Assembly: GCA_002794775.1 (NCBI GenBank)
Contig: NBAY01000084.1
Coordinates: 1 to 64,000 of the forward strand
DNA: 64,000 nt
Direction of reading: 5' to 3'
Source: Porodaedalea pini
Lineage: Eukaryota > Basidiomycota > Agaricomycetes > Hymenochaetales > Hymenochaetaceae
A program made the position numbers and the translations under genes. The first letter of the stretch is position 1. The number at the start of each line of letters is the position of its first letter. This document shows positions 1-55,104 of this stretch, piece after piece. The notes beneath the pieces are model-generated. The model was given only the letters and a program-made list of their open reading frames with translations, ran no database searches and had not been told where the DNA came from.

Positions 1-1133
1 CTAGGAGCCCACCAACCACCCCACCCATCACCAACACCATCGCCTATCATGGCGGAACCCAAGCCCCAGACGCACCAGTGGCCGGAGCTCCGACGATCTC
101 AAACGACATGATGCAGGAGATCATCAATGCGCTACATGGCCTAGGATTACTAGCAACCCCCACGCCAGCAGCTGCAGCAGCACCTGTCCCTCCACCAACA
201 AGCCGCAGTGGAGGAAGACACATCGCCAAACCCGAGGCATTCAACGGGCGAGACTATAAGAAGTTCGAACGTGCCATCACCCTTTACGTTGAAGCTAACG
301 CAGAGGACTTCGTGAACGACAAGGACTACTTCCTTTTCGTGTTATCGTTCATGACGGAAGGCTCGGCTGCACTCTGGGCACAGAACTTCCTGGAAAGCAT
401 CAAAATGGATGGCTATCTGATCTTTTCACTCGTCAGTCGCCAGAAGTTCAACGAACAACTGGAGAAAGTGTTCGGAGATCCGAACGAACGCATGAACGCC
501 ATGCAGAAATTGGACAGCTGGAAACACACCCGGGACATCACAGCCGACCAATTCTTCCAGCAGTTCGATATCTATCGCCGTGCGGCAGGATACAGCGATG
601 ACGCCAAAAATGACGACACCCTCATCCACAAACTGACGAAAGCCTTGGATAGAGAGATCGTATACCGGATCGAAATGAGTGACACAGTCCCAACCACGTA
701 CAAAGGCTGGCAAGAAAAAGCCATTCGATTTGACAACGCTAGACGTCAGATGAAAGCCATTGAACAAATGCGCGCTGCCCCGTCCAGACCTCAGGCACCC
801 CCACCAAAACCTGCCCAGACATTCGCACCTAGAATCCCCAAAAGGCGCGATGCCACCGGAGTCACATACGGAGGCATGGGGAAGCCGATGGACGTCTCAC
901 TCAAAGAGCTGAGGAAAGCAGGACTCTGCTACTACTGCAAAGAATCTGGGCATCTACAGAGGAATTGCCCAATGCAGAAGAAGGTGATAAGGGCTGTGTT
1001 AATGGGGATGGAACCCCGAGAGAGAAAAGTCTGGGCAGACGAGACCGCGACGCTCAAGGAGTCAGACTTTGCGGAGGAAGAAGAGGAGGCGCTCTTTGAG
1101 CAGGAGTTGGATTTTGCGGAGCCCCAGCAGTGA
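1..1133 (+). CDS. Gag polyprotein of the chromovirus, 5'-partial
   Basis: The frame starting at base 3 is open to a TGA at 1131-1133. Its N-terminus is outside the window: no ATG lies in this frame near the edge, and the ATG at 49 belongs to another frame. A retrotransposon Gag region runs through the middle and is followed by one CCHC zinc knuckle (C-x2-C-x4-H-x4-C, bases 927-968, motif CYYCKESGHLQRNC), which binds nucleic acid in particle assembly. The C-terminal tail is very acidic. The stop overlaps the beginning of the pol frame by a few bases, which suggests a programmed frameshift or re-initiation to make Pol. Confidence 0.93.
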   Translation, partial: RSPPTTPPITNTIAYHGGTQAPDAPVAGAPTISNDMMQEIINALHGLGLLATPTPAAAAAPVPPPTSRSGGRHIAKPEAFNGRDYKKFERAITLYVEANAEDFVNDKDYFLFVLSFMTEGSAALWAQNFLESIKMDGYLIFSLVSRQKFNEQLEKVFGDPNERMNAMQKLDSWKHTRDITADQFFQQFDIYRRAAGYSDDAKNDDTLIHKLTKALDREIVYRIEMSDTVPTTYKGWQEKAIRFDNARRQMKAIEQMRAAPSRPQAPPPKPAQTFAPRIPKRRDATGVTYGGMGKPMDVSLKELRKAGLCYYCKESGHLQRNCPMQKKVIRAVLMGMEPRERKVWADETATLKESDFAEEEEEALFEQELDFAEPQQ

Positions 1134-4100
1134 ACACGGCACTGACTGGGATAGGTTCAGTTTCGGTTTTTCAAACGGCCATTTTTGATAATTCTATGGA
1201 CTCTGTAGATAATTTAGATAAAACACAAAAAAATGTAAAAAGCAATGTCACTCGCAAAAATATTCCTTCTGTTCCTGTACCAGTAGCTAGTAGTGTAGAT
1301 ATGCCTACATGTAACAACACTTCTGCCTCATCATCTTGTTCTACTCCTGTGTCAAAAAATCATGTAAAACCCTATTCCGAATCTTTTAATTCTATTTCTT
1401 CCTTGGCCGGAACTGAACCGAAATCCATGAAAAATGAAAACTCGTCGAAACAAGCTGAGAGGAAGTCCCGGAGAGATCGCCCTGTCCCCTTTACTGCCCC
1501 ATGGGTGGTACAGCGTCTCAAAGAGGATAAACTCGAAAGTGCTTTAACGACTCTCCAAGTGTGGATGAAACAGCAGAGGCATGCTGAAGCGAATGAAGAG
1601 ACGGTGCATCAAATCATTGCGCTAGAAGAATCAGATGCCGTGGCAGCTGTTAGGGACCTGAGGGGTCCGAAATGGTTCGTAAGAGGGTCTCGGGGGCAAC
1701 AGCTCATGGTACCGATTCTCCTTCAAACGACCGACACCGGTAACCAGTTCAAGGTAGACGCCCTACTGGACAGTGGCTGCACTGGCTCGTGTATCAACCG
1801 ATCCTTCGTCGAAAAGCATCAGATCAGGACAAAAAAGACACCCATCCCAATCCGAGTCTATAATGCTGACGGCACGCTCAACAAGGACGGCTCGATCACA
1901 GAGTTTGTGGAAATGCGCATGACAATTAAGGATCATTCAGAGCGCATCCACTTCGCAGTCACAGATCTAGGGAAAACAGATGTGTTCATCGGACATGAAT
2001 GGTTAAAGCTGCACAATCCCAACATCGACTGGCAAAAATCAACGATCGAATTCGATCGATGCCCCGATGTATGCGGCTATATCCGTAGTCTAGAGGACAT
2101 TGATGCAGACCCCGACGAAAACCTTGATTTGGTGGAACTTGAAGACGGCGATCAGCTCTTCCTCTTCGATTGGGACAGGTACATTAAGTCCGATCTGAGA
2201 AAAGCGCTGAAGGTCAGACAACAGGTGCTCGAGGAAGTCCCAAACTATGTCAAAGAGTTCGCGGACGTCTTCAGTGAACAGGAATTTGATCAGTTACCAG
2301 AGAGACGCCCTTGGGATCATGCTATTGAACTCAAGCCGGGTTCAAAGCTCTCTGACTGTAAAATCTACCCGCTCAGTCCATCCGAACAGGTGGCACTGGA
2401 CAAATTCCTCACCGAAAACTTGAGAACTGGCCGTATTCGTAACTCTCAATCTGAGATGGCATCCCCCTTCTTCTTCATAAAAAAGAAGGATGGCAAGCTT
2501 CGCCCCGTACAGGATTATCGCCGGCTCAACGAGATGACGGTTAGGAACAAATACCCGTTACCTCTAATCCAAGAGCTCATCGACAAAACAAAACAGGCGA
2601 AATTCTTCACGAAGCTTGACATACGTTGGGGTTACAATAACATTTGGATTCGAGAGGGTGACGAGCATAAAGCCACCTTCAGGACAAACCGCAGTCTATT
2701 CAAACCAACGGTCATGTTTTTTGGTCTCACAAACTCACCGGCAACCTTCCAAGGATTCATGAACGAGATCTTCCGAGAACTCATCAATGATGGACATGTC
2801 ATAGTCTACATGGATGACATTCTGATCTTCGCACGAACTCACGAACATCATGACAAACTCGTCCGACAAGTCCTGGAAGTGTTGCGAGCAAACAAGTTGT
2901 TCTTAAAGCCAGAAAAGTGCAGCTTCGCTCAAGAGACTGTGAACTATCTTGGGCATATCCTTGGCAATGGACAGATTCACATGGATCCAGCCAAAGTGGC
3001 AGGTGTAAAAGATTGGCCAGTGCCTAAGAACAAGAAAGAACTACAGTCTTTCCTTGGGTTCTGCAACTATTACCGCCGCTTTATCCTAGCATTCAGTCAT
3101 TATGCAAAGCCCTTGACAGTGTTGACCGGAGATGTAGAGTGGAAGTGGGAGGTGGAGCAACAGGAGGCCTTTGAACGTCTGAAGCAGAAGCTCTGTGAAG
3201 AACCCGTACTCACAGTGCCTACTGATGACGGTCAATTTCGAGTGGAGGCCGATTCGTCGCATTTCGCTAACGGCGCCATTCTGTCCCAATTCATTGACGG
3301 AAAGTGGCATCCAATCGCATACCGATCGCAAGCGCTTAGCCAAGCAGAGCGCAACTACGAAATCTATGACAAAGAGATGTTCGCAATCATGTGCGCACTG
3401 GATGACTGGCGACAATATCTTCTAGGGGCAACGCAAACCTTCGAAATCTGGTCGGATCACCTCAACCTCCAGTATTTCCGAAAACCCCAGAAGATTAACC
3501 ACCGACAAGCAAGATGGCTACAGGAGTTAGCAGACTACGACTTCAAACTGTTCCATAAACCAGGTGCCCTGATGACTAAGGCTGACCTCCTCTCGAGACG
3601 AGCAGATCATGAGAGGGGGGAGAACGACAATATCAACATCGTTTTGCTCAAGCCGGACCTATTTGTAAACGAAACACTGCTAGAAGCGCTGGATGCAGAC
3701 TTTGTTAAACGAATTAAAAGGGTACGAAACAACAGGGACAGAGCAGTTGTGAAGGCGTTAGAGTGGAAGGAACGAGAATGGGATGAAGAAGAAGGGTTGT
3801 TGATGTGGAAGGGCAGGATCTACGTGCCGAAAGACCATAAACTCCGAGAAGACATCATTCGAAACCATCACGACAGCACGCTTGCAGGACACCCAGGACG
3901 CTACAAGACCCATGAGTTGATCACATGCAACTACTGGTGGCCAGGAATCCAACGAGATGTTCGAATATATGTCGAGGGATGTGATGCGTGCCAACGTACC
4001 AAGGCACACAGAGCGAAACCGCATAATCCCCTGAACCCGAACGAGATCCCGAAAGGTCCGTGGGAAATCGTCACAGCAGACCTGATCGGCGAACTACCCG

Positions 4101-5269
4101 AGTCCAATGGGCATAACGCAATCTGTGTCTTCGTTGACAGGTTCAGTAAACAGGTGCATGCGATCCCTACCTCTGTGAGCATAACGTCGGAAGGAATGGC
4201 GAGACTCTATCGGGATCATGTCTTCAGGCTACACGGCATACCGCGCAAGTTTATTCATGACAGAGGATCACAGTTCGAGTCCAAATTCATGAACGAACTA
4301 TACCGGTTACTGGGCATCGAGGGAAACCCGTCAACGGCATATCACCCACAGACAGATGGTCAGACAGAACAGATAAACCAAGAGATTGAACAGTACCTTC
4401 ATCTCTTTGTTAACCACCATCAGTCAGACTGGGCGGAATGGCTTGCGCTAGCGGAATTCGCGTACAATGACAAAGAACAAATGTCGACAGGAGCGTCACC
4501 CTTTTTCGTCAACCATGGGAGACACCCATATAAGGGCACGAATCCTAGACGCGAATCGACCAATGAGTCCGCTAAGCAGTTTGCCGACCGGATGGCCAAG
4601 ATCAGGGAGGAAACCGAATCGGCGTTAAAGCATGCGGCTGAAACCATGAAGCGCTTCTATGACAGGATGAAGGGAGAATCCATCGAGTATAAACCTGGGG
4701 ATAAGGTCATGCTCAAAGGAACTCACTTAAAGACAGATCGTCCTATGAAGAAGCTGGGAGATAAACGCTATGGGCCTTTCATCGTCGAAAAGAAAATCGG
4801 CACATCAGCATATAGGCTCAAACTTCCACGTACATGGAAAAAAGTCTATACAGTTTTCAATGAAGTGCTCCTCTCCCCATACCACGAGCTGCAGTATACG
4901 TCGCAAAAACAAGATCCTCCACCCCCGCCCGAGATCATTGATGATGTGCCGGAATATGAGGTCGAAAAGGTTGTCGACTCCAAACTTGTGCGAGGGAAGC
5001 TCAAATACCTCGTACATTGGAAAGGGTATCCGAACGAAGAACGCACCTGGGAGCCAATTGAGAATTTGATAAACTCTCAAAAAGCCATTGACGAATTTCA
5101 TAAATCGACTCCCAGTGCTCCTCGCACCCTCAACACCCTAGAGATGTCACAGCTGAAGTTCCGACCCGTATTTGAAATGACGGAGCCTGAGAGACAGGAA
5201 GGAGTGGCACAGTGGTGGGCCGGTAAGTTCCAGGGTAGGGAACAAGGGCGATCGGGACACCCGCCTTGA
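1130..5269 (+). CDS. Pol polyprotein (PR-RT-RNase H-IN-chromodomain)
   Basis: About 1,380 codons are open to TGA at 5267-5269. Counting from 1130, domains in order are: a low-complexity Ser/Thr-rich region (about 1-110); an aspartic protease with the active-site triplet DSG (about residue 210); reverse transcriptase with YMDD (about 560); RNase H beginning near 705; an integrase HHCC zinc finger (about 912-960); the DDE integrase core (D in TADLIGEL near 982, D in IHDRGSQF, E in EQINQEIEQY); and a chromodomain (about 1275-1315, with YLVHWKGY and RTWEPIENL). Every catalytic residue checked is present. The start is uncertain: the frame overlaps gag and the first ATG is at about 1196, so synthesis as a Gag-Pol fusion is likely. 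Confidence 0.95.
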   Translation: MNTALTGIGSVSVFQTAIFDNSMDSVDNLDKTQKNVKSNVTRKNIPSVPVPVASSVDMPTCNNTSASSSCSTPVSKNHVKPYSESFNSISSLAGTEPKSMKNENSSKQAERKSRRDRPVPFTAPWVVQRLKEDKLESALTTLQVWMKQQRHAEANEETVHQIIALEESDAVAAVRDLRGPKWFVRGSRGQQLMVPILLQTTDTGNQFKVDALLDSGCTGSCINRSFVEKHQIRTKKTPIPIRVYNADGTLNKDGSITEFVEMRMTIKDHSERIHFAVTDLGKTDVFIGHEWLKLHNPNIDWQKSTIEFDRCPDVCGYIRSLEDIDADPDENLDLVELEDGDQLFLFDWDRYIKSDLRKALKVRQQVLEEVPNYVKEFADVFSEQEFDQLPERRPWDHAIELKPGSKLSDCKIYPLSPSEQVALDKFLTENLRTGRIRNSQSEMASPFFFIKKKDGKLRPVQDYRRLNEMTVRNKYPLPLIQELIDKTKQAKFFTKLDIRWGYNNIWIREGDEHKATFRTNRSLFKPTVMFFGLTNSPATFQGFMNEIFRELINDGHVIVYMDDILIFARTHEHHDKLVRQVLEVLRANKLFLKPEKCSFAQETVNYLGHILGNGQIHMDPAKVAGVKDWPVPKNKKELQSFLGFCNYYRRFILAFSHYAKPLTVLTGDVEWKWEVEQQEAFERLKQKLCEEPVLTVPTDDGQFRVEADSSHFANGAILSQFIDGKWHPIAYRSQALSQAERNYEIYDKEMFAIMCALDDWRQYLLGATQTFEIWSDHLNLQYFRKPQKINHRQARWLQELADYDFKLFHKPGALMTKADLLSRRADHERGENDNINIVLLKPDLFVNETLLEALDADFVKRIKRVRNNRDRAVVKALEWKEREWDEEEGLLMWKGRIYVPKDHKLREDIIRNHHDSTLAGHPGRYKTHELITCNYWWPGIQRDVRIYVEGCDACQRTKAHRAKPHNPLNPNEIPKGPWEIVTADLIGELPESNGHNAICVFVDRFSKQVHAIPTSVSITSEGMARLYRDHVFRLHGIPRKFIHDRGSQFESKFMNELYRLLGIEGNPSTAYHPQTDGQTEQINQEIEQYLHLFVNHHQSDWAEWLALAEFAYNDKEQMSTGASPFFVNHGRHPYKGTNPRRESTNESAKQFADRMAKIREETESALKHAAETMKRFYDRMKGESIEYKPGDKVMLKGTHLKTDRPMKKLGDKRYGPFIVEKKIGTSAYRLKLPRTWKKVYTVFNEVLLSPYHELQYTSQKQDPPPPPEIIDDVPEYEVEKVVDSKLVRGKLKYLVHWKGYPNEERTWEPIENLINSQKAIDEFHKSTPSAPRTLNTLEMSQLKFRPVFEMTEPERQEGVAQWWAGKFQGREQGRSGHPP

Positions 5270-37390: not shown

Positions 37391-38494
37391 TCAATCGGAA
37401 TCCTAACGTGTATTTGTCAGAACACGTTCAGACTATTATCAGAAACAGACTTACCGAAAGCACTTCCTCACGCTCCTCATCGCCGTCATCCTCCAGATGG
37501 CCCCATGGAACATCCACCTCCGCCCAACTATCAACAGAGATGTAGACCTGCGCACACGCAGACTAGAATAGTACTCACCGGTCTCCAGTAGGAGCGTTCG
37601 GATCAACTTTGTCTCGCCGCCTACGAGGTGGAGGCTTGATGGTCTTGATGAGATATAACGGCGTGAAGTTCGCCTCATGGCTGAATCCCTTTCGAAACAG
37701 CCCAGAGTCGCCGTCGGTCCACCACATAGCGTCAACGTCAGCACCAGCTGAAACGGCTGGATTAACAGGTGCGTCTGCCTTCAGAGCAATCTTGACAGTC
37801 TCGTTATCTATGCAAACGGATAAACACCAGCTTGAACCGCATACATAAGAATCAGATACTTACTCTTGTTAGAAAGATAAAGGGCGTAAGCATGACAAGA
37901 GAATACCTGGGTCACGAGCATTTTTCCTTTCAGGAACTTGTTGGAGATGGTTGCGTTGCAGAACTCGTCCGGTACTACGGACATCTGAGGCTTGTGCATG
38001 ACGAGCAAAGCTCCGCGTGTCTTGTCGAAATGCCACTGGGTCGCGAACGCTGCATTCGCAAGCCCATGGACATCCCTGCGAGCTCAATGAAGTTAGATGT
38101 GGATAGAAAAAAAGATTAGAAAAAGGAATAAATGCTTACACGAGTGCGCTAGCGTCGATTTTGCCTTTTCTCGCGTTCAGAGAGCTTGCAATGTATTCTT
38201 TCTCTGTCGGCGGGTAAGTCGGCAAATAGGAAGCCGCAATGCTGGCAGTAGACGGGTGAGTGTAGATATTGCCCTCCCTCTCAAATTGGCCGGAATCGTA
38301 ATTGATGCCGCCGAAATCGCCTGCCTGTAAGCCAAATGAGAAGAGAAAGAAAAGAAAAGACGGCCATAGGGACATTAACAGCTGACCTTGATGCAGAGCG
38401 GCGGATCCCAGTTCGCCCACTTGGACGAGGTGTGCTTGATCAGGTCAACATATTTGCGCGAGGCCTGTTTCTTCTTGAACCAGCCGTCAAACAT
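37391..38494 (-). CDS. Candidate fungal gasdermin-like pore-forming protein, 272 residues
   Basis: Six exons (38387-38494, 38140-38324, 37864-38075, 37579-37807, 37455-37527, 37391-37402) join in frame into 273 codons; all introns are GT...AG, 51-64 bp. The start MFDGWFKKK is the most likely; an in-frame upstream ATG (38584) would add 30 residues. Features are a short basic N-terminus, KWANWDPP, a mostly beta-strand body, a basic Pro/Arg linker (PPPRRRRDK, about residues 227-235), then a 37-residue, largely acidic tail ending EEVLSDSD. Size, general layout and the neighbouring CHAT-protease gene fit fungal gasdermins (RCD-1/HET-Q1 family), which kill cells when a small C-terminal piece is cleaved off. 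I infer the family from these traits and a general impression of the sequence, without a search. The gene shows no damage. Confidence 0.55.
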
Positions 38495-39364
38495 CGTGTA
38501 GATGATCAGGGAGATGAAGAGGTGGCAGGCATCGCTGCGCTGCTTTATATGTGCAGCATAAGCGCTAAGGCTTGCTCTATTCATGGTATCAGCTTCATCT
38601 AACGATGAAAGTCAGCCGACCAAGCTCCTTCCATGACTTCGAGGCTCTCTAAGCCCGGTAGACTCCATTGATAGCAGCATGAGTATGCACGGAAGGAGCT
38701 TCGTATCATTTTGCAATTCTGACAGTGAGTAGGCAGTTGCCAATTTGAAGCGTGGGAAATTTTGTACTGACCGGTACGTATCACCAGCAAAACTTGAAGT
38801 CACGGTTGTGCATTGTGAATCGGCGCATACCTGCTGGGTGACATTACTTATGTATACTTTACAATACGCTGCACCTGCAATACCAGTATTACCAGCGAGA
38901 GCTCAATGCTTGTCATAGCGTGAGACTTGCCAATGAAAGCCGCGCCCTGTCAACGTGGCTGATTGTACCTCAAGCCATTTCCAGTAACAGTCTTGTGCTT
39001 TATGTTTTCGTAACACGTATCTTACTATCTAACACGTTGTTGGTGATGTCTTGACCATTGACATTTTTCTGCCCTAGACCCCTCTTTCCTCCCTCCATCT
39101 GAGACACACAGTTAGCATTACGCAGTTCCTAGATAAAGGTATGACACTGCATTTGCAAACGTTGCATCGTAGCTGATCAAGTCTGCCTTGCAGTGTCTCC
39201 TAGGTATATCGATCCAATTCAAGGATTTCTAGTGTCGCTGAAGGGTAAGGCTTTAGACACTGGCCTATTCTATTTCCATTTTCTTACTTTGCTTCTTAGC
39301 ATTCTTCGCCGCAACTATTTCGACTCGGAGACGACACGGAACATTCGCAGATTCAGCTTAACTA
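38495..39364. promoter_or_regulatory. Shared divergent promoter region
   Basis: About 870 bp separate the ATG codons of the candidate gasdermin-like gene (leftwards) and the CHAT-TPR gene (rightwards), so both may be controlled from here. A possible intron in the 5' leader of the CHAT gene runs from GTAAGG at 39245 to an AG at 39299. I found no clear TATA box and no specific operator-like repeat. Confidence 0.4.
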
Positions 39365-42031
39365 ATGGACAACCTCGACGAGAAAGTCACTCGCTGTCGC
39401 GATGTTTTGGGTTTGCATCCTCCTGGACATCCAGACCGTTCTAGCTCATTATATGATCTTTCTTATGCTTTGCGGAGTCGTTTCATACAAACTGGGAGGA
39501 CGAAAGACCTTGACGAGTCGATAGCATGTGATCGTGACGCGCTTCTACTACGACCTGAAGGTCATGCTAGCCGCCTAGCGTCCCTGTGGAGCCTCTCCAT
39601 CTCTCTCATGGTTCGATTCGGACAGAACGGTCGAATGGAGGATCTGGAAGAGTCGATTCCACTGCACCGTGATGTGTTGGATCTCCATCCTACCGGCCAC
39701 CCTGATCGTTCCGGTTCATTGATTAACCTTGCAGCCGCTGTTTTGACTCGATTCGGACAGAGCGGTCGATTGGAGGACTTGGAAGAGTCGATTTCACTGT
39801 ACCGTACCGCATTGGATCTCCGCCCTGCCGGCCACCCTAATCGTTCCAGTTCATGATAAACCTTGCAGACGCGCGCTGTCAAAACTCGATTCACGCAGAA
39901 CGTTCGAATGGAGGACTTGGAAGAGTCGATTAAACTGCACCACTCCGTATTGGATCTCCTCCCTCCCGGCCACCCTGATCGTTCCAGTTCGTTGATGAAC
40001 CTTGCAAACGCTGTCACAACTCGATTCCAGAAGATCGGTCGAATGGAGGACCTGGAAGAGTCAATTGAACTGTACCGTACCGCATTGGATCTCCGCCCTC
40101 CCGGCCACCCTAATCGTTCCATGTCGTTGATGAACCTTGCGAACGCTGTCAAAACTCGATTCGAGCAGAACGGTCTAACGGAGGACCTGGAAGAGTCAAT
40201 TGACCTGTACCGTACCGCATTGGATCTCTGCCCTCCCGGCCACCCTCTTCGTTTCATGTCGTTCATGAACCTTGCAAGCGCTGTCGAAACTCGATTCAAG
40301 CAGTCATATCACGAGAAAGATCTTGAGGAGGCCATTGAACTGCTGGAGTCTGGCGCTCGTCATGAATTTTCCAGCTCATTGACGCGCCTCCAATCGGCTT
40401 GCCGATGGACGAATCTCGCACGATCGCATACCCATACCACTGCTCTCAGCGCATACAACACTGCACTGCACCTCCTTGAGCGCTCTCTGAACGTCGTCCC
40501 CACTGTGAACATGCAGCACGAGCTATTAAATGGAAAAAATGGCTATCCATCGCTAGCCGTAGATGCTGCGTCGTATGCTATTGAAAAGGGCGATCTCGCC
40601 CAAGCCGTTGAGTTTCTTGAGCAAGGGAGGGCCTTGCTCTGGTCCCAAATGCGTGGCTTCAGGATGACTATCGATCGTCTCGCGGAAGTCAACAAAGAAC
40701 TGGCCGACAACTTCAAGGACGTTAGTAACGAATTGGAGGCACTTGTCACTGGCGCATCGCCCGAGATGCACTTTCCTGGATCGAGGGTAGCTGACGGCCT
40801 TGCAGACGGATTGCGGACGGGACGTTTATCACTTGATGAAATGATGGCACGGAGTCGGCGTCTTTCAGAGGACCGAAAGAAACTAATCGGCAAAATACAG
40901 GAACTACCTGGCTTCGAAGACTTTCAGCGACCTACCCGATTCACAACGTTACGGGATGCGGCTGATGAGGGCCCCATCATTGTTATCAATCACTCCAGCT
41001 ATCGCTCCGATGCCATCATTGTTACTAATGACCACGATCCCGTCCTCGTTCCGCTATCAGAAAGCGTCCCCGAGTTCTATGAAACGGCATTCGACCTGTA
41101 CAGGCGTCTCACAGACGCACGTCGAGATCTTTCATCCCTTCCGAATAATTACAACGAAATCCTTAGATTTGTAATGGAGAAATCATGGACGCTGGTCGTG
41201 TCTAAGGTGATCGAGAAGCTCAAGGAGATCGGAGTTGAGGAACAACATCGGATTTGGTGGTGCCCGACTTCGATTTTGCAGGCCTTACCATTGCATGCTG
41301 CCGGGATATGGTCCAAGGACGACAGGGGTATAACGGGCTATCGCTCACACAAATATATATCATCTTATACACCTACTCTCCAAGCCCTAATCCAGGCTCG
41401 GTCCAACATGTCCCCTGACTCTGCGCATAAACCGCCATTTCTCGTCGTTGGCCAGCCGGACGAGAGTCTCCAAAACGTCGGACACGAAATCGATCTGATA
41501 GGGAACTCTGGAAGATCCATGACGTGCCTTGTCGGAAAGCAAGCGACTAGCAGCGAAGTAATCAGAAGCCTCAAAGAACACCCATGGGTCCATTTCGCGT
41601 GTCACGGGGAACTTGTTCCAGGCAGACCTTTCGATTCGTCTTTCCGGCTTTTCGGAGATGATCGCCTTAGTTTGCTCGAAATTGTTCGCGCTCGTCTCCC
41701 AAACGCCGAGGTCGCCTTCTTAGCTGCCTGTCATACTGCGGAGCAGACTGTTGATAGCGCTCACGACGAGGTGCTTCACCTCGCTGCGGGCGTGCAGTTC
41801 TGCGGATTTCGGAGCGTGATTGGGACGATGTGGGCAATGCTCGATGAGGACGGGCCAGCCCTTGCGCAGAAATTCTACTCTCCTATGTTTGCAGAAGACG
41901 GGATGCCGGAAGCGCGGTTCAAGCGATCCGCCCGAGCTCTTCATAACGCAATAAAGGAGATGCGAAGGAAGATGCGAAAGGAGAAAGACTCGCTTGAAAG
42001 ATGGGTGAACTTTGTTCATATTGGAGCATAA
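39365..42031 (+). CDS. CHAT-domain protease with TPR-like repeats, frame broken near 39854
   Basis: An ATG at 39365 opens a frame that, apart from adjacent TGA and TAA codons at 39854-39859, runs to the stop at 42029-42031. The first half has about seven 45-residue repeats (pattern DLEESI, LYRTALDLRPPGHPxR, NLANAVxTRF) of the TPR type. The second half is a CHAT domain, a caspase/separase-related cysteine protease, with catalytic His in HFACHG (codon 41603-41605) and Cys in LAACHT (41729-41731). Around the stops, comparison with sister repeats suggests a one-base loss followed within about 25 bases by a four-base gain, so the frame is regained. This is either a recent inactivation or a sequence error. 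Fungal CHAT proteases are reported beside gasdermin genes, as here. Confidence 0.85.
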
Positions 42032-45445: not shown

Positions 45446-46301
45446 TTACAGCCTTTTTCATAAGTCCTGCGACACGTGCATGTCACGTGAAATGAGCCGC
45501 GTCAGAGCCAAAGTGTCGAAAAATTAGAATGAATGACTATTTTCTCTGTAGATTCTGCACAGAACCTGCTCATTAAGTACTCAAAAAAAAAGGCACGGTT
45601 CTCAGGAGAAGAAATATGTAAAATATGGAGCAATAAATTGACTGTGTAGGCAGGTGGAGATCAAACAAGTGCAGCTGGTCTGTTCTCTTACCCATTTCCA
45701 CTGAGATTCAAAAATTATGGCTCCCCTACATCTACCTATAAAACTCTTTCCTGTGTCTGTAAATTAAGTATATGACTATACCAACATCTCCTGAAAGTTT
45801 GAAGCCAATCCATTCAGTATTCATGGTCCAGCAGCAAGATTTGTGTTCTACTCTGCAAGACCTGTTGTGAGAAAAGGAGGGTGGAAAGAGCTTGAAGTGG
45901 AACACAAATCTTGCTGCTGGACCATGAATACTGAATGGATTGGCTTCAAACTTTCAGGAGCTGTTGGTATAGTCATATACTTAATTTACAGACACAGGAA
46001 AGAATTTTATAGGTAGATATAGGGGAGCCATAATTTTTGAATCTCAGTGGAAATGGGTAAGAGAACAGACCAGCTGCACTTGTTTGATCTCCACCCACCT
46101 ATACAGTCAATTTATTGCTCCATATTTTACATATTTCTTCTCCTGAGAACCGTGCCTTTTTTTTGAGTACTTAATGAGCAGGTTCTGTGCAGAATCTACA
46201 GAGAAAATAGTCATTCATTCTAATTTTTCGACACTTTGGCTCTGACGCGGCTCATTTCACGTGACATGCACGTGTCGCAGGACTTATGAAAAAGGCTGTA
46301 A
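45446..46301. mobile_element. 856-bp palindromic foldback element, copy 2
   Basis: Arms 45446-45852 and 45896-46301 are near-perfect inverted repeats around a 43-base loop. The ends TTACAGCC...GGCTGTAA and most of the arm sequence match copy 1 at 18567-19411. Read as reverse complement, the loop resembles that of copy 1 (AGCTCTTTCCA...CTTGCAG), so the two copies sit in opposite orientation. It lies about 440 bp upstream of the MFS start codon. It carries no open frame of note. Confidence 0.93.
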
Positions 46302-49033: not shown

Positions 49034-52000
49034 CTAGAGGTGGTATGTGGAAGGGAGTTCGGAGAAAAGTGGCATGGCGTCCGGGGGGCGACGAAAAGAA
49101 AAATAGGCAAATTGAAGTAGTAAAAGGAAGTTGTTAGGACGGAACCAGTCCGAAAAGGTAAGAGGTAAAAGGCGATGACGAAAAAGGCCGTGGCGAATAT
49201 GAGAAAAGAAAGGGCAAACATTAAGGGTGTGACGGACATCATGCTTGACGCAGAGGGGGTCCGGGCAACGAGGTTCCAGGTTACGGTTATGCAGGTCAAG
49301 GGCGTTAAGCAGTAGGCTTATGGCGCGTCCGTGAACTAGACGGGATATTCTCTTCTCGGGGTTAAGTTTGAGGAATGCGCGAAATGATCGGGTGGGGGAA
49401 AGGATAAACGATGATGGTTCGCCAATCGATCGATGGCTGCGCAAGTTGATGGTACGCATTTTCCAGTCTCGAAGGAGATCGAGCTGGAGTTGCACGTTAA
49501 GATTCGGTAATGATTCCGGTATGGGCTCGCGGACGTGTTTAGAGGCGGCGTCTTTGGCCAGTTTATCGGCTTTCGAATTGCCCAAGACTCCTTTATGAGA
49601 AGGGAGCCATTGGACAACAATATGCGATGCAGGGTGATGTAGTGCGAGAAAAATCCCGCAAAGGCGACGAAAGAGTGTGATGAAGTCTGCGTGTCGTGCA
49701 TCGTTGGTGAAAATGAGGTTGGCGCAGTTAAGCGAGTCGGTAACGATATGAATGTGTACCGGGGTTGAACATTTCGAGAGAAGAGAAGATATCCGGCGTA
49801 AGGCTGCGATGAGCGCTTCCTGCTCTTCGAACAGTATGTTCGAATGAGAGTGCGCTGCTGAAGTAAAGACAGCAAGTTCGACGTGACCGTGCATAATGAC
49901 GTATCCGTGGCCACCGTTGGCGGATCCAGTGTCATCTGTAATGATGGAGCCATCTGTGAAAATAAAGTATTGATAAGGAGGGGGTCGTAGGTAGAAGGAA
50001 TTGAATGAACGAATCGCTCTCTGGCGTTGGTCGGGTGCAGGGATGGGAGTGAGAATGAGTCTGGAATGTACAGGGACGAAAGTCGGGTAAGGGGGGTTTT
50101 TGGGAATTGAAATGTTAGGAAGGAGTAAATCGCAGAGGTAGCTGTTGTTGTTTTGGGTTTTGTTAGAGTGAGAATAATAGGATAGCAAAAAACGCTGTGA
50201 AAGTGAACGAATGAAGAGATCCAATGGAGGAATGGAAAGAACAGATTCTGCAATGGACGGGTTTATACTGGAATGAAGGACAGAATGAAGGAAATCGTTC
50301 TGAATAGGTTGTAGGAGAGAAAGGATAAAGTTGGAATTGGGAAAGAGGACTGCGCCGTAAATGGCGACGGAACGGATGAGACCGAAATATAAGAGTCGGG
50401 CGTATTGAAGGTGGGCCCCGTTAAAAGAATTGAATAGAAAAGAACGTTGGCGTAATGTGGAGAGTGCTTTGTTCGCGCGCGAGAGAAAATGGAGTTTGGG
50501 GGAAAGGTCGTAAGAAAGAATGATCCCGAGCCATGTAAGGTGTTTGGACGGTGGAATAACGAGACTGCCAGGAAGCGACAGAGAGGGGGTAAAGGATGGA
50601 TTCTGATTGGAAAGAAAAGACTGGAAATGGAAGCGGGCGAGTTGTGGATGGGGAATAATATGTAAAAGCTCGATGGCGTTCGGGTCAATTGACAGACCGA
50701 GCGCTTGGAATTGAGAGGAAAGGAAAGAAAATTGGTTACGAAGTCGTACCAAGTTCGTTTTAATACTGAGAGAACGGGCAGAAAGAAGATGGTCGTCCAT
50801 GTATGCGAGTAAAGGACGGTGGGGGCCAAAACGCTTGGAGTAAGCGAAGATGACATCAGCTGAAGCGAAAATTGAAATGAGAGGAGAAAGAGGTGACCCT
50901 TGAGGGACCCCTCGGTTCGGTTTTATGAACGGGGAAGAAAAGAAATTGTTGAAATGAAATGAAATGGGGCGGTCGGCGAGCCAGACAGCCAATACATGAA
51001 TGAAATTTGGATGAACATTGGAACGAATGAGTTTGTTAAGAAGAAGGGAATGAGAAATGTTGTCAAAAAAACCCTGAATATCCACGGTCAAGATGGAGGT
51101 AATGTAGTGGCGATGACGACGGTTGACGCGATCAACAACCGTTTCGCCCAGAAGAATGTAAGGGTTGGAACAGATAAGTGAAAGAAGTTCGTAGCAGGCT
51201 GTGAGGGATGAGCGATGTTTTCGGCACCCATGTTGGGTGTCAGGGAGAAGGTTGTTCTTTTCGAAAAAAGGTTGTAAAAAATTGAACAGGATACGTTCGA
51301 AAAGTTTCCCGATTGTGTCGACTAAAGAAATGGGTCGGAAAGCACGAGGCACGGAAAAATCGGTGCGCTTGGGTTTGGGAATGAAGGTGACAAGAGAAGT
51401 TTTAAATGAAAGAGGAAAATGGCCCAATTTAAGGCATAAGGAGAAAAGATCCGCAAAGAATTGGCCTTGATGTTCGACCAGCAAAGAAAGGTGTTGGTAC
51501 GAGATATGGTTGTTACCAGGGCTCGTTTCTTTATCGATACCGCGAAGGGCATAGAAGACGTCATCCGTCGACACCGTTGGACCGTCAGAAAGGGCCGGGA
51601 GGCGGACCGGCTCTGGCGGGGACGAAAGAGGTGGGAAGAATGTATTGCGAAACACGGAGGCCTTATCTTCCTCGGTGAGAGAGAAGGAGCCGTTTGGCAT
51701 ACGAAGTGCACCAATAGGGGAACGGCGACGCGCAACGCCAGTAAACTGGCGATGCCAGATCGAGTGCTGATTGGAGCTTTGAAGGCGTGCTCCGTAGAAT
51801 GCGGTTTTGCATCGGGAAAGTTCGACTTCCAGACGGTGTTTCGTTTCTGCCGACGGATTCCGGCAATGTTCGCGGTAGAGTTTCGAACACATTTCCGACC
51901 ACCAGGCGTTGGGGCCAAAATATGTGCGAGGCTTTCTTTTGCGGAGGAACGACCTAGCGAAAGAAGATAAAGAGTCTTGAAAAGAGAAAAGTAAGTCGTC

Positions 52001-52861
52001 CAGCGACTGGGTTGAGTGAATGTTTTGAAGATTAAAGGAAAACAATTTTGAATTGCAGAACTCGGATATGAAAGTTGGTAAATCACGAGAACGAATAGAA
52101 CGAAGGGGAGGTTGAGGAGGAGCGTCAAAGATGTTGAGCCTGAACGAGAACGTAATGGGGAAGTGATCTGAAGAAACGGTTAGGGAAGGGTCTGCAATAA
52201 TAACAGATTCGGAAATTTCAGAAGAAAATTCGTCAGATGAAAGAACGAGGTCGATGATGGATCGACTGTTCGTAGAACGATTGAGATACGTGGGTTGGTC
52301 CGGTGGGCTACAAATAACGAGGCCGGTCTCACTGATCCAGTCGGTGAAGACGCGGGAAAGATGGAATTGATGTGATTGTTCTGGGAGTGACCACAAAGCC
52401 GAATGGCGATTGAAATCGCCGACGAAAATATTAGAGGGAGAATTAAGAACGGGTAAATGTGACTCGAATTCCCGTTCGGAAGGGGAATTGTAAACGTTCC
52501 AGAGGAGAAGAGGGGTAGGAAGGTCCCTGGAAATAGAAATAACAGAAATACAAGGAGAAGGATTGGGAGTTTGAAAGAGGGAGACGCGATGAATAAGGCG
52601 GGAGTGAACATAAGTACAACAACGGGGTTTCCCCGGGACTGGCGGGAGAAACGCCGTGTAGGGTGCGTAATTGCGAGAATCGAAAGCCCGTGAACCAGAA
52701 GGGTCGGACTTGGAGGGAATAATTCGTTGGATAACTGGGATTTCCTGAAGGCAAACGATGTCCGGAGCCGGAAGGGTAGAAGAGAATGAACGAAACAAGA
52801 AATCGAAGGAGGGATTAGAATTGCGAATATTAAGGGAGAGGACGGATATTTTTTCCGACAT
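49034..52861 (-). CDS. LINE ORF2: endonuclease-RT-RNase H, 1275 residues
   Basis: An ATG at 52859-52861 lies five bases after the ORF1 stop. Residues about 1-230 form an EEP endonuclease (LSLNIRN, CLQEI, VGDFNRHS, SSDHFPITF). The RT follows, with FRPISLVDTIGKLFERILF, VDIQGFFDNIS, GVPQGSPLSPL and the catalytic YMDD at about residue 687. The RNase H domain starts near 968 (IFTDGSI, EEQEALIAAL, VTDSLNC, LPSHKGVLGNSKADKLA). A C-x4-C-type knuckle (CPDPLCVKHDVRHTLNVC) lies near 1200. All catalytic motifs are present and no stop interrupts the frame, so the enzyme could be active. It nicks target DNA and reverse-transcribes the element RNA in place. Confidence 0.95.
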   Translation of the reverse strand: MSEKISVLSLNIRNSNPSFDFLFRSFSSTLPAPDIVCLQEIPVIQRIIPSKSDPSGSRAFDSRNYAPYTAFLPPVPGKPRCCTYVHSRLIHRVSLFQTPNPSPCISVISISRDLPTPLLLWNVYNSPSEREFESHLPVLNSPSNIFVGDFNRHSALWSLPEQSHQFHLSRVFTDWISETGLVICSPPDQPTYLNRSTNSRSIIDLVLSSDEFSSEISESVIIADPSLTVSSDHFPITFSFRLNIFDAPPQPPLRSIRSRDLPTFISEFCNSKLFSFNLQNIHSTQSLDDLLFSFQDSLSSFARSFLRKRKPRTYFGPNAWWSEMCSKLYREHCRNPSAETKHRLEVELSRCKTAFYGARLQSSNQHSIWHRQFTGVARRRSPIGALRMPNGSFSLTEEDKASVFRNTFFPPLSSPPEPVRLPALSDGPTVSTDDVFYALRGIDKETSPGNNHISYQHLSLLVEHQGQFFADLFSLCLKLGHFPLSFKTSLVTFIPKPKRTDFSVPRAFRPISLVDTIGKLFERILFNFLQPFFEKNNLLPDTQHGCRKHRSSLTACYELLSLICSNPYILLGETVVDRVNRRHRHYITSILTVDIQGFFDNISHSLLLNKLIRSNVHPNFIHVLAVWLADRPISFHFNNFFSSPFIKPNRGVPQGSPLSPLISIFASADVIFAYSKRFGPHRPLLAYMDDHLLSARSLSIKTNLVRLRNQFSFLSSQFQALGLSIDPNAIELLHIIPHPQLARFHFQSFLSNQNPSFTPSLSLPGSLVIPPSKHLTWLGIILSYDLSPKLHFLSRANKALSTLRQRSFLFNSFNGAHLQYARLLYFGLIRSVAIYGAVLFPNSNFILSLLQPIQNDFLHSVLHSSINPSIAESVLSIPPLDLFIRSLSQRFLLSYYSHSNKTQNNNSYLCDLLLPNISIPKNPPYPTFVPVHSRLILTPIPAPDQRQRAIRSFNSFYLRPPPYQYFIFTDGSIITDDTGSANGGHGYVIMHGHVELAVFTSAAHSHSNILFEEQEALIAALRRISSLLSKCSTPVHIHIVTDSLNCANLIFTNDARHADFITLFRRLCGIFLALHHPASHIVVQWLPSHKGVLGNSKADKLAKDAASKHVREPIPESLPNLNVQLQLDLLRDWKMRTINLRSHRSIGEPSSFILSPTRSFRAFLKLNPEKRISRLVHGRAISLLLNALDLHNRNLEPRCPDPLCVKHDVRHTLNVCPFFSHIRHGLFRHRLLPLTFSDWFRPNNFLLLLQFAYFSFRRPPDAMPLFSELPSTYHL

Positions 52862-52866
52862 AAGAA

Positions 52867-55104
52867 TTAATAGGGAGAGCGATAATTGCGGCGAGCGGGA
52901 CAGTCAGAAGACCGTGCGCTATGGTTTCCCTGGCAGTTAATACATAAAGCAAAATGGTCACATTGTAGGTTGTTGGCCGCTGTGCACGGAGCGCATTTGG
53001 CGACATGGACAGCGGTGCGATGGGTTTCTGAACAAATAGCACAACGGGCTACAGAGCAGCATTTAGAAGCAGCATGCCCAAGGCGGTGGCAATTGTCGCA
53101 TTGGTGGATAATGGGGCGTGCCTTCATCTCTTCGAGGCGACGAATGACGCCGAAGACGGGGACTGAACGGTTGCCGTGTAGGAAGAAATGGTCGAAAGAA
53201 AGACGGTCAGGGTCCTTCATCACGACGGAAATGTTGCAGAAGTCCCGTTCGTTAAGGCGTTCGGGAGAGGACATGAATCTTGGCGGGAACATAAACTCTC
53301 GTCCTTCGAATTGTGGTAGGGTCGAGATCTCGTTAAAGAGGTCTGTCTCGCTGTAGATCAGTTTGGATTCCCTGTCGAAAACGGGGACGCCGGGGATAAT
53401 CATTTTGAATTGCGGGGACGGGATGAAGGGTTTCGCTCCGCTAATATTGATAATATGACTGAGCTGGGTGGCGAGAGTGGGGTAGTTAGCATCGAAATCG
53501 GCTCGGATGTTAGTGAAGGAGATGAGGAGGTTGCTGTTCGAGGTGTACTCGACATTCAGCACGACCAGGTGTTTGAACGAAGGGCTGCCCTTCAGCCCTG
53601 CCCTTACGGAATTTTTAACTGATTGGGTTAGTGGGCGAACTGCTAGGTCCCCAGGGAGGGAAAAATAGACGCGTTTGATATTGGATGAGCGAATATTAAC
53701 CGATCCGTTGGAACGGTTGACAGGTACCGTTGAGATTTCCCCGTCAGGGTTCTCTGCGGTGTGGCGAAGCACTTTGGTTGGAGTCGTCTTAGCCTTTTTC
53801 TGGGCCACTTTCGCGTAGGTTACTGTGGTAAATCCGTCTCTGTCAGTACCAACAGATTCAACCTTCGGATGATAGATGGAGGTCTTGCCCGGTCTAGGGG
53901 CGTTGTGTGCGGAGTGAGCATAGCCATCAGGACCATAAATGATGCCTTCCGAGCTCATGCGAAAACCGGATCCAGGGACGCGTGTATTGGCAATGGCTGT
54001 AGCATAGTCGGACTTCCCATTCTTTGGGGTTTGGACCCGCTGTTTGACGATGGGGGGATCCGGGGGGATCCGGTTATCATGTACGAAGCGTACGCCAATC
54101 GGGTCAGGGAGAAGTTTGCCCTGTGGCTTGTTAGTTGCGAAAGAAGTCTTGGGAACTGCAGAAGAAGGAGAAGGGCGAGTCAACTGTTTTTCAAGGTTAT
54201 TAGTTTTATCAACAAGCGAGGAAACGAGAGACGTGAGAGACTGAATTGAACGGGACATGGAAGACATATCCTCGGCGATATGTTGTTCTCGAATGGCCTG
54301 TGCTGAAATGTGAACATCATCGAAAACATGTTTAAAATCGGGTGAATGAATGCGATAAGACGAATGGAAAGCTTGTAGTCCTTCGTTAGCTTTATTTTCT
54401 TTAACAGTTTCGTCATCAAAACAATGCGCTTTGCTGAGCCAAGATACAAGATTGGAGGCCACATCTGCAAGGGCTTTGCCGGCACGGATCGGATCTTCGT
54501 GCCACGGCGTGGGAGAGGTCCAGGAAGGCTGAGTAATAAGAACGGCGATGTGATCGATAGTTTCCTTAGTCAGGTGTGTATAGGAGGAAGAAACTCGTTC
54601 GGCGATTTGCGGGTCCTCGTATTCCGATAACGACCGGTCGTCCATTTCGTCGTCGACCTGGGGGGCTTGGCTCGAGTTAGGAACGTAGAGGTCGTCGGCC
54701 TCCATGTCCATGATATCATCAATGCGCTGGGGTGGCTGTAGTGCATGGTGTTCCTCTTCCGAGTTAGAGCGTTTGAGGGACGGTTGTGAATCTATAGTGG
54801 GCGTAGGGGGGAGATTCCCTTGCTTACGCAGGGCGGCTGCATGGGCGTCCGCCTCGACATCGGGAGACCAATTGGCCCGGTTCTTCGCTACGGTGTCACA
54901 GACGGCGTCGGTGTGGTTATAGGTCTTATCGCGACCACAGACGACGCAGAGTTTATCTTTGCCGCTAACACAGCTGCGGCTGTGATAGGGGAGATCCGAT
55001 TTACACTCCTCACACTTGGTGGGGTCCTTGGGATTGGCAAGGGAAAGAGACGACTTTGTTTTATGGAGAGATGCTTTGGCTCTGGTCAGCATTTTGCTGT
55101 CCAT
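52867..55104 (-). CDS. LINE ORF1: zinc-knuckle RNA-binding protein, 745 residues
   Basis: The first ATG in the frame (MDSKMLTRAK, 55102-55104) is taken as the start; the frame is open a little further upstream. The N-terminus has two CxxC pairs (CEECKSD, CVVCGRD) that look like a zinc finger. The middle contains a mainly helical region and long Ser/Pro-rich linkers. The C-terminus has a series of cysteine/histidine knuckles (CDNCHRLGHAASKC, CAICSETHRTAVHVAKC, CINCQGNHSARSSDC). By analogy with other LINE ORF1 proteins it coats the element RNA and assists target-primed reverse transcription. The stop and ORF2 start are close enough for termination-reinitiation. Confidence 0.9.
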   Translation of the reverse strand: MDSKMLTRAKASLHKTKSSLSLANPKDPTKCEECKSDLPYHSRSCVSGKDKLCVVCGRDKTYNHTDAVCDTVAKNRANWSPDVEADAHAAALRKQGNLPPTPTIDSQPSLKRSNSEEEHHALQPPQRIDDIMDMEADDLYVPNSSQAPQVDDEMDDRSLSEYEDPQIAERVSSSYTHLTKETIDHIAVLITQPSWTSPTPWHEDPIRAGKALADVASNLVSWLSKAHCFDDETVKENKANEGLQAFHSSYRIHSPDFKHVFDDVHISAQAIREQHIAEDMSSMSRSIQSLTSLVSSLVDKTNNLEKQLTRPSPSSAVPKTSFATNKPQGKLLPDPIGVRFVHDNRIPPDPPIVKQRVQTPKNGKSDYATAIANTRVPGSGFRMSSEGIIYGPDGYAHSAHNAPRPGKTSIYHPKVESVGTDRDGFTTVTYAKVAQKKAKTTPTKVLRHTAENPDGEISTVPVNRSNGSVNIRSSNIKRVYFSLPGDLAVRPLTQSVKNSVRAGLKGSPSFKHLVVLNVEYTSNSNLLISFTNIRADFDANYPTLATQLSHIINISGAKPFIPSPQFKMIIPGVPVFDRESKLIYSETDLFNEISTLPQFEGREFMFPPRFMSSPERLNERDFCNISVVMKDPDRLSFDHFFLHGNRSVPVFGVIRRLEEMKARPIIHQCDNCHRLGHAASKCCSVARCAICSETHRTAVHVAKCAPCTAANNLQCDHFALCINCQGNHSARSSDCPARRNYRSPY

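What the first reader, a model, noticed from the sequence alone, without database searches (positions are those of the whole stretch)
37391..42031. Candidate gasdermin-like effector divergently paired with a CHAT-TPR protease
Seen: an undamaged six-exon gene for a 272-residue beta-rich protein, with a basic Pro/Arg linker about 45 residues from the end and a mostly acidic tail, lies 870 bp from and divergent to a CHAT-domain protease with TPR-like repeats. Known: fungal gasdermins (RCD-1, HET-Q1) cause allorecognition cell death, HET-Q1 loses a C-terminal piece of about 5 kDa to the protease HET-Q2, and most fungal gasdermin genes are clustered with subtilisin-like or caspase-related protease genes. 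Inference: the pair is a self-contained cell-death module in which the CHAT enzyme, sensed through its repeats, would cut the linker region.
Basis: partly seen in the sequence, partly recalled or inferred. Interest (0 to 1): 0.9.

Follow-up and report, generated by a model that had tools for sequence, protein, structure and literature searches.

The report
Mushroom gasdermin paired with CHAT protease
A mushroom-type fungus carries a gene for a predicted gasdermin, a membrane-punching cell-death protein, beside a caspase-like protease with a repeat-built sensor arm, and the same gene pair recurs elsewhere in its genome and apparently in a related species.

Summary

The pairing recurs. Seven of eight copies (five of six loci) are divergent to a CHAT gene. 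In Coniferiporia weirii the relatives bear consecutive locus tags.

Two corrections. The window's CHAT frame has two adjacent stops (39854-39859) in its TPR array; the apparent other haplotype is open, with about six more repeats. And gasdermin/CHAT-TPR clusters are already known in fungi, one with experimental activation (PMC12881547).

New here: a sequence-divergent basidiomycete gasdermin family, and haplotypes differing in their sensor arrays. Cleavage, killing and allorecognition are inferred.

The parts
37391..38494 (-). Gasdermin-like gene, six exons, 272 residues
   Evidence: Splice model, spliced re-alignment, 22 relatives, predicted fold of two relatives
37579..37634 (-). Codons of most of the basic Pro/Arg linker (about residues 227-245), the inferred cleavage region
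   Evidence: Sequence. Mean column identity 0.40 over the matching residues of P0009, against 0.45-0.48 for the body, although one Arg (R233) is nearly invariant in A2; block mean pLDDT 55 in the P0009 model
37391..37526 (-). Exons 5-6: conserved acidic tail (W-x5-PW-x2-L-x3-G), inferred inhibitory piece
   Evidence: P and W in 26 of 26, L and G in 25 of 26, first W in 24 of 26 aligned members; first tail block pLDDT 89 in the P0009 model
38495..39364 (.). Divergent intergenic region, possibly a shared promoter
   Evidence: 870 bp here and in C78, 781-788 bp in four paralogous copies at 82.5-84.5% identity, no higher than the introns of the one paralogue compared (85.0%); 3 of 870 positions differ from C78
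39365..39853 (+). First part of the CHAT gene: start and the first TPR units of 45 residues
   Evidence: TPR_12 at 2.3e-6, just below its curated cut-off; units listed
39854..39859 (+). Two adjacent in-frame stop codons (TGA TAA) inside the TPR array
   Evidence: the C78 copy is open across this region
39860..42031 (+). Second part of the CHAT gene: remaining TPR units, hinge and CHAT domain (723 residues)
   Evidence: Pfam CHAT 3.7e-33, TPR_12 6.8e-11
41222..42028 (+). CHAT (caspase-like) domain
   Evidence: PF12770 residues 455-723 of the second frame
41603..41605 (+). Candidate catalytic histidine (FACHG motif)
   Evidence: Motif found; the catalytic role is recalled from the caspase/CHAT family
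41729..41731 (+). Candidate catalytic cysteine (LAACHT motif)
   Evidence: Motif found; the catalytic role is recalled from the caspase/CHAT family

Best explanation
This is a two-gene cell-death module of the fungal gasdermin/CHAT-TPR kind. The 272-residue protein has a gasdermin-like pore-forming body held inactive by a short conserved tail. A CHAT caspase-like protease, switched on through its TPR array, cuts the linker before the tail; the freed body assembles pores and kills the cell. Supported here: the gasdermin fold (predicted, on relatives), the conserved tail, the recurring divergent pairing, apparently intact His and Cys motifs, and a sensor array that differs between apparent haplotypes. 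Inferred: autoinhibition, cleavage, pore formation, death, and the trigger. In this haplotype the CHAT frame is interrupted, so the intact C78 copy or another CHAT may have to act in trans.
Confidence: 0.72

Rival explanations
1. The protein is a gasdermin but is not activated by cleavage: the CHAT-TPR partner binds it or acts on another target, and the pores form as in RCD-1, by contact between variants.
For: Cleavage is untested here. RCD-1 kills by co-expression of two variants (PMC10197012, passages). The two apparent haplotypes encode gasdermin-like proteins that differ at 3 residues.
Against: The pair is kept together. The tail is conserved, as expected for a cut-away inhibitor. The two haplotype proteins agree at 269 of 272 residues, whereas rcd-1 alleles are described as highly polymorphic (PMC10989679, passages).
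Confidence: 0.12
2. The protein is a distant MACPF/CDC-like or unrelated beta-rich protein, and the gasdermin match is only superfamily resemblance.
Against: Every Foldseek row with E <= 0.001 in both models is a gasdermin. The two bacterial gasdermin pores stand more than 3 Z units above the RCD-1 rows and 5 or more above the CDC rows. Size, short tail and protease partner fit microbial gasdermins.
Confidence: 0.1
3. This haplotype is a decaying relic: the CHAT copy is dead and the gasdermin gene survives only by recency, with no current role.
For: Two adjacent stops in the CHAT frame. A neighbouring pair, C44:263k, has an open 1234-codon CHAT frame but a stop in the gasdermin-like frame as I modelled it, so decay may occur in this family.
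Against: The gasdermin frame is intact, with 10 synonymous and 3 replacement codon differences to the C78 copy. The CHAT part after the TPR array keeps its His and Cys motifs and differs at 16 of 564 residues. The stops could be an assembly error in a repeat array.
Confidence: 0.3

Closest known systems
Fungal gasdermin with TPR-bearing CHAT protease, two-gene cluster of Podospora anserina (Clave 2022, as cited in PMC12881547)
   Same: Gasdermin gene beside a CHAT gene with TPR repeats
   Different: Basidiomycete; no sequence similarity to known gasdermins found in the libraries searched; conserved W-x5-PW-x2-L-x3-G tail motif; no experiment yet
HET-Q1/HET-Q2 of Podospora anserina
   Same: HET-Q1 loses a C-terminal piece of about 5 kDa (PMC12881547, passages); here a conserved tail of comparable position
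   Different: The HET-Q2 protease is subtilisin-like and the two genes are idiomorphs; here CHAT and gasdermin genes lie side by side
RCD-1-1/RCD-1-2 of Neurospora crassa
   Different: RCD-1 acts by meeting of two variants (PMC10197012, passages); here a protease gene is the neighbour
Bacterial gasdermins (Vitiosangium, Runella, Bradyrhizobium)
   Same: Best structural matches (8sl0, 9a84_A); short tail; protease genes clustered nearby (PMC10197012 section 15)
   Different: About 10% sequence identity in the structural alignment; eukaryotic gene with five introns
Fungal NLRs with highly internally conserved TPR repeats (Dyrka 2014, PMC4986451)
   Same: Near-identical repeats, repeat-number polymorphism, variable positions that recur between repeats
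   Different: The receptor here is TPR-CHAT with no NOD domain matched by Pfam in the window's two pieces

Membership tests
Gasdermins (fungal) | Gasdermin N-terminal pore-forming fold | tested here: met
Gasdermins (fungal) | Sequence similarity to known gasdermins | tested here: inconclusive
   None found with Pfam, PADLOC, NCBIfam, PDB profile or protein database search. I had no RCD-1/HET-Q1 alignment for a profile-profile test
Gasdermins (fungal) | Short C-terminal inhibitory tail behind a cleavable linker | tested here: inconclusive
   Conserved tail behind a somewhat less conserved, low-confidence linker; inhibition and cutting cannot be tested here
Gasdermins (fungal) | Gene clustered with a protease gene | tested here: met
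   7 of 8 copies divergent to a CHAT gene; C. weirii neighbours by locus tag and contig length
Gasdermins (fungal) | Membrane pores and cell death | not testable with these tools
   Needs expression and liposome assays
CHAT-TPR proteases (caspase-like) | CHAT domain with His and Cys motifs | tested here: met
   PF12770 3.7e-33; FACHG and LAACHT motifs
CHAT-TPR proteases (caspase-like) | TPR repeats and CHAT domain in the same open frame | tested here: met
   The 723-residue frame holds TPR_12 (three stretches) and CHAT; but in this haplotype two stops cut off the earlier part of the array. The C78 copy is one open frame
CHAT-TPR proteases (caspase-like) | Proteolytic activity | not testable with these tools
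   Needs an enzyme assay
Allorecognition (het) locus | Incompatible alleles that trigger death on fusion | not testable with these tools
   Only two apparent haplotypes of one genome seen; repeat number differs between them

The most novel reading that the evidence does not exclude
These pairs are somatic-incompatibility loci of mushroom-forming fungi: a gasdermin family missed by sequence profiles, whose CHAT-TPR sensors differ in repeat number and repeat content between the two nuclei of one dikaryon. The window haplotype, with intact gasdermin and broken protease, would be the primed half of a pseudogenised idiomorph like het-Q1/het-Q2, and C44:263k, with open CHAT and apparently broken gasdermin, the reciprocal half.
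Probability: 0.15. Interest if true: 0.85.

Novelty: new variant of a known kind. Interest (0 to 1): 0.6.

Why it matters
Current models of somatic incompatibility rest on ascomycetes (PMC8229728, start of abstract in the listing), and fungal gasdermins are described as clearly more abundant there (PMC10197012 section 15). A divergent basidiomycete gasdermin family linked to CHAT-TPR sensors would give named candidate genes for death-based non-self recognition in mushrooms, and would show that the profile libraries searched here miss gasdermins that structure prediction can find.

Tried and rejected
Subtilisin-type partners: the 5 S8 matches listed lie on contigs C33, C8, C56, C149 and C6, none with a copy of the gene (such counts are lower bounds). 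Hidden partners at unpaired CHAT genes: a profile of the family over loci L046-L054 gave no hit above the inclusion threshold (one below it at E 0.045, L054). More distant gasdermins by sequence: the profile search scored 7998 candidates and returned 27 proteins at E <= 1, none with gasdermin in the name shown. An intron removing the stop pair: neither scanned donor motif in the 204 bases up to the stops.

Positive selection on the TPR array: positions picked in C44_259k gave dN/dS 0.57-2.03 against 0.15-0.34 elsewhere in seven other genes, one of which (C44_241k) shares near-identical units with C44_259k. But positions picked in C44_230k gave 0.30-1.47 against 0.24-0.44, with no rise in C136 or C44_355k, and positions picked in C90 gave no consistent rise. 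So diversifying selection is suggested, not shown.

A shared constrained promoter: between paralogues the intergenic region (83.0% for C44_352k) is no more conserved than the introns (85.0%).

Searches failed by script error; their comparison, also missed, was made. In one search the C44_355k piece was cut in the wrong frame and not used. The Lactifluus subvellereus match of contig lengths (P0016 and P0116, 101656 bases) is weak because that species has many CHAT genes.

Full report
What is in the sequence. The minus-strand gene at 37391-38494 has six exons and five introns of 51-64 bp with GT..AG ends. From the start used by its relatives it encodes 272 residues; an upstream in-frame ATG would give 302. 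The divergent CHAT gene starts at 39365, 870 bp away, and ends at 42031. Pfam finds CHAT (3.7e-33) and TPR families over their cut-offs in its second part. The CHAT reading frame holds TGA and TAA at 39854-39859 inside the TPR array, so in this haplotype it is two pieces.

Tail and linker. In the 26-member alignment the residues of the tail (242-258 of P0009) average 0.60 identity, the linker (229-241) 0.40, the body 0.45-0.48 and the first 30 residues 0.65; I chose these boundaries. The tail holds a Pro-Trp pair in 26 of 26, Leu and Gly in 25 of 26, and a Trp in 24 of 26. The linker is thus only a little less conserved than the body, and one of its Arg residues is nearly invariant. In the P0009 model the linker block 231-240 has mean pLDDT 55, the next block 89 and the one after 70; in the P0001 model the blocks from 231 read 65, 52, 80, 67. 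This fits a flexible linker followed by a docked tail. That the tail inhibits, and that the linker is cut, is inference from other gasdermins.

The pairing. G000, the window's assembly, has 53.3 Mb in 201 contigs. Eight places hold the gene: C84 (window), C78, C44 near 235k, 244k, 263k and 352k, C136, and C90 near 60k. The CHAT search gave 17 rows; 7 of them are the divergent neighbours of 7 of the 8 places (coordinates) and 10 are not paired. C78 is collinear with the window, 93-98% identical, and C136 with C44:352k at 97.7-98.7%. I take these as two haplotypes of a partly phased assembly and count six loci, five of them paired. A simple random-placement estimate for at least five of six loci is 4e-14, but it ignores duplication of the pair as a unit, which is likely for the four pairs on C44. 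The C44:235k pair is diverged (effector about 35-37% by tblastn, CHAT 50%) and still paired. Outside this genome, the best effector relative is M0805_001922 of Coniferiporia weirii on a contig listed as 30256 bases, and the second-best of 1706 CHAT relatives is M0805_001923, also on a contig listed as 30256 bases (120 of 1706 listed). I take these as neighbouring genes; orientation could not be read. For the other named relatives no gene order could be read. The best CHAT relatives are from Phellopilus, Coniferiporia and Fomitiporia, so the host is probably one of the Hymenochaetales (the placement of these genera is recalled).

The sensor arm. The CHAT proteins carry 45-residue TPR units: 13 found in C78, 6 in C44_355k, 8 in C136. 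The stretch from the ATG to the end of the array is 972 nt in the window and 1779 nt in C78, a difference of 5.98 units. The rest of the locus differs less: left flank 3.28%, effector gene 1.9%, intergenic 0.34%, CHAT after the array 2.42%, right flank 4.02%. Variable positions recur between genes (entropy correlations 0.41-0.83); in C78 several sit 3-4 residues apart (24, 27, 31, 34, 37, 41), as on one face of a helix. Tests for selection were mixed (see Tried and rejected). This resembles the highly internally conserved TPR repeats of fungal NLRs, with repeat-number polymorphism and variable concave-face positions (PMC4986451, passages). The unpaired CHAT genes C90 and C50 also show such repeats, so this is not special to the pairs.

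Compared with what is known. Reviews state that about 80% of fungal gasdermin genes are clustered with protease genes, about 19% with CHAT (PMC10197012, section 15 read), and that in P. anserina a TPR-bearing CHAT protease activates its clustered gasdermin (PMC12881547, section 21 read). The primary paper (Clave 2022) was not held, so I cannot say whether it already lists this family. In the listings (30 of 38 papers shown; 25 of 1,792 shown), and in the passages that I opened, I saw no description of it; the library holds open-licence papers only.

Verdict. What is new is the divergent basidiomycete family, its conserved tail, its recurring divergent pairing with CHAT-TPR, and apparent haplotypes that differ in the sensor. 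The state of this particular CHAT copy needs long-read confirmation.

Noticed in passing
window 45446-46301: A repeat of about 856 bp with many copies over the genome (108 match rows; 40 of 515 candidates scored); copies match on both strands, so the element is a long imperfect palindrome.
   Followed up: no
L041 (C44:238500-247500): The CHAT gene of this pair looks chimeric: hinge region like C44:259k up to about residue 112, then a catalytic half 73% identical to the neighbouring C44:230k CHAT and 49% to the window type.
   Followed up: partly
L042 (C44:256500-266000): Open 1234-codon CHAT frame, but a stop in the gasdermin-like frame as modelled: the reverse of the window's state, if the splice model is right.
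   Followed up: partly
L044 (C136) compared with L043 (C44:352k): The two apparent haplotype copies of the gasdermin-like gene region differ by a 21-bp gap, in exon 2 by my placement, and 2 mismatches.
   Followed up: no
window 38495-39364: The intergenic region differs at 3 of 870 positions between apparent haplotypes, far less than the flanks (3.3-4.0%): gene conversion or constraint.
   Followed up: partly
G000 C90 near 60k (L045): A divergent orphan copy of the gasdermin-like gene; the nearest CHAT match on its contig is about 46 kb away.
   Followed up: partly
window 1100-5266 and 49037-52903: Retroelement frames: an LTR-type polyprotein with integrase and chromodomain, and a non-LTR type with endonuclease, reverse transcriptase and RNase H.
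   Followed up: no
P0013 (Hygrophoropsis aurantiaca): A relative annotated with a hydrophobin domain fused in front (Pfam PF01185); possibly a merged gene model.
   Followed up: no
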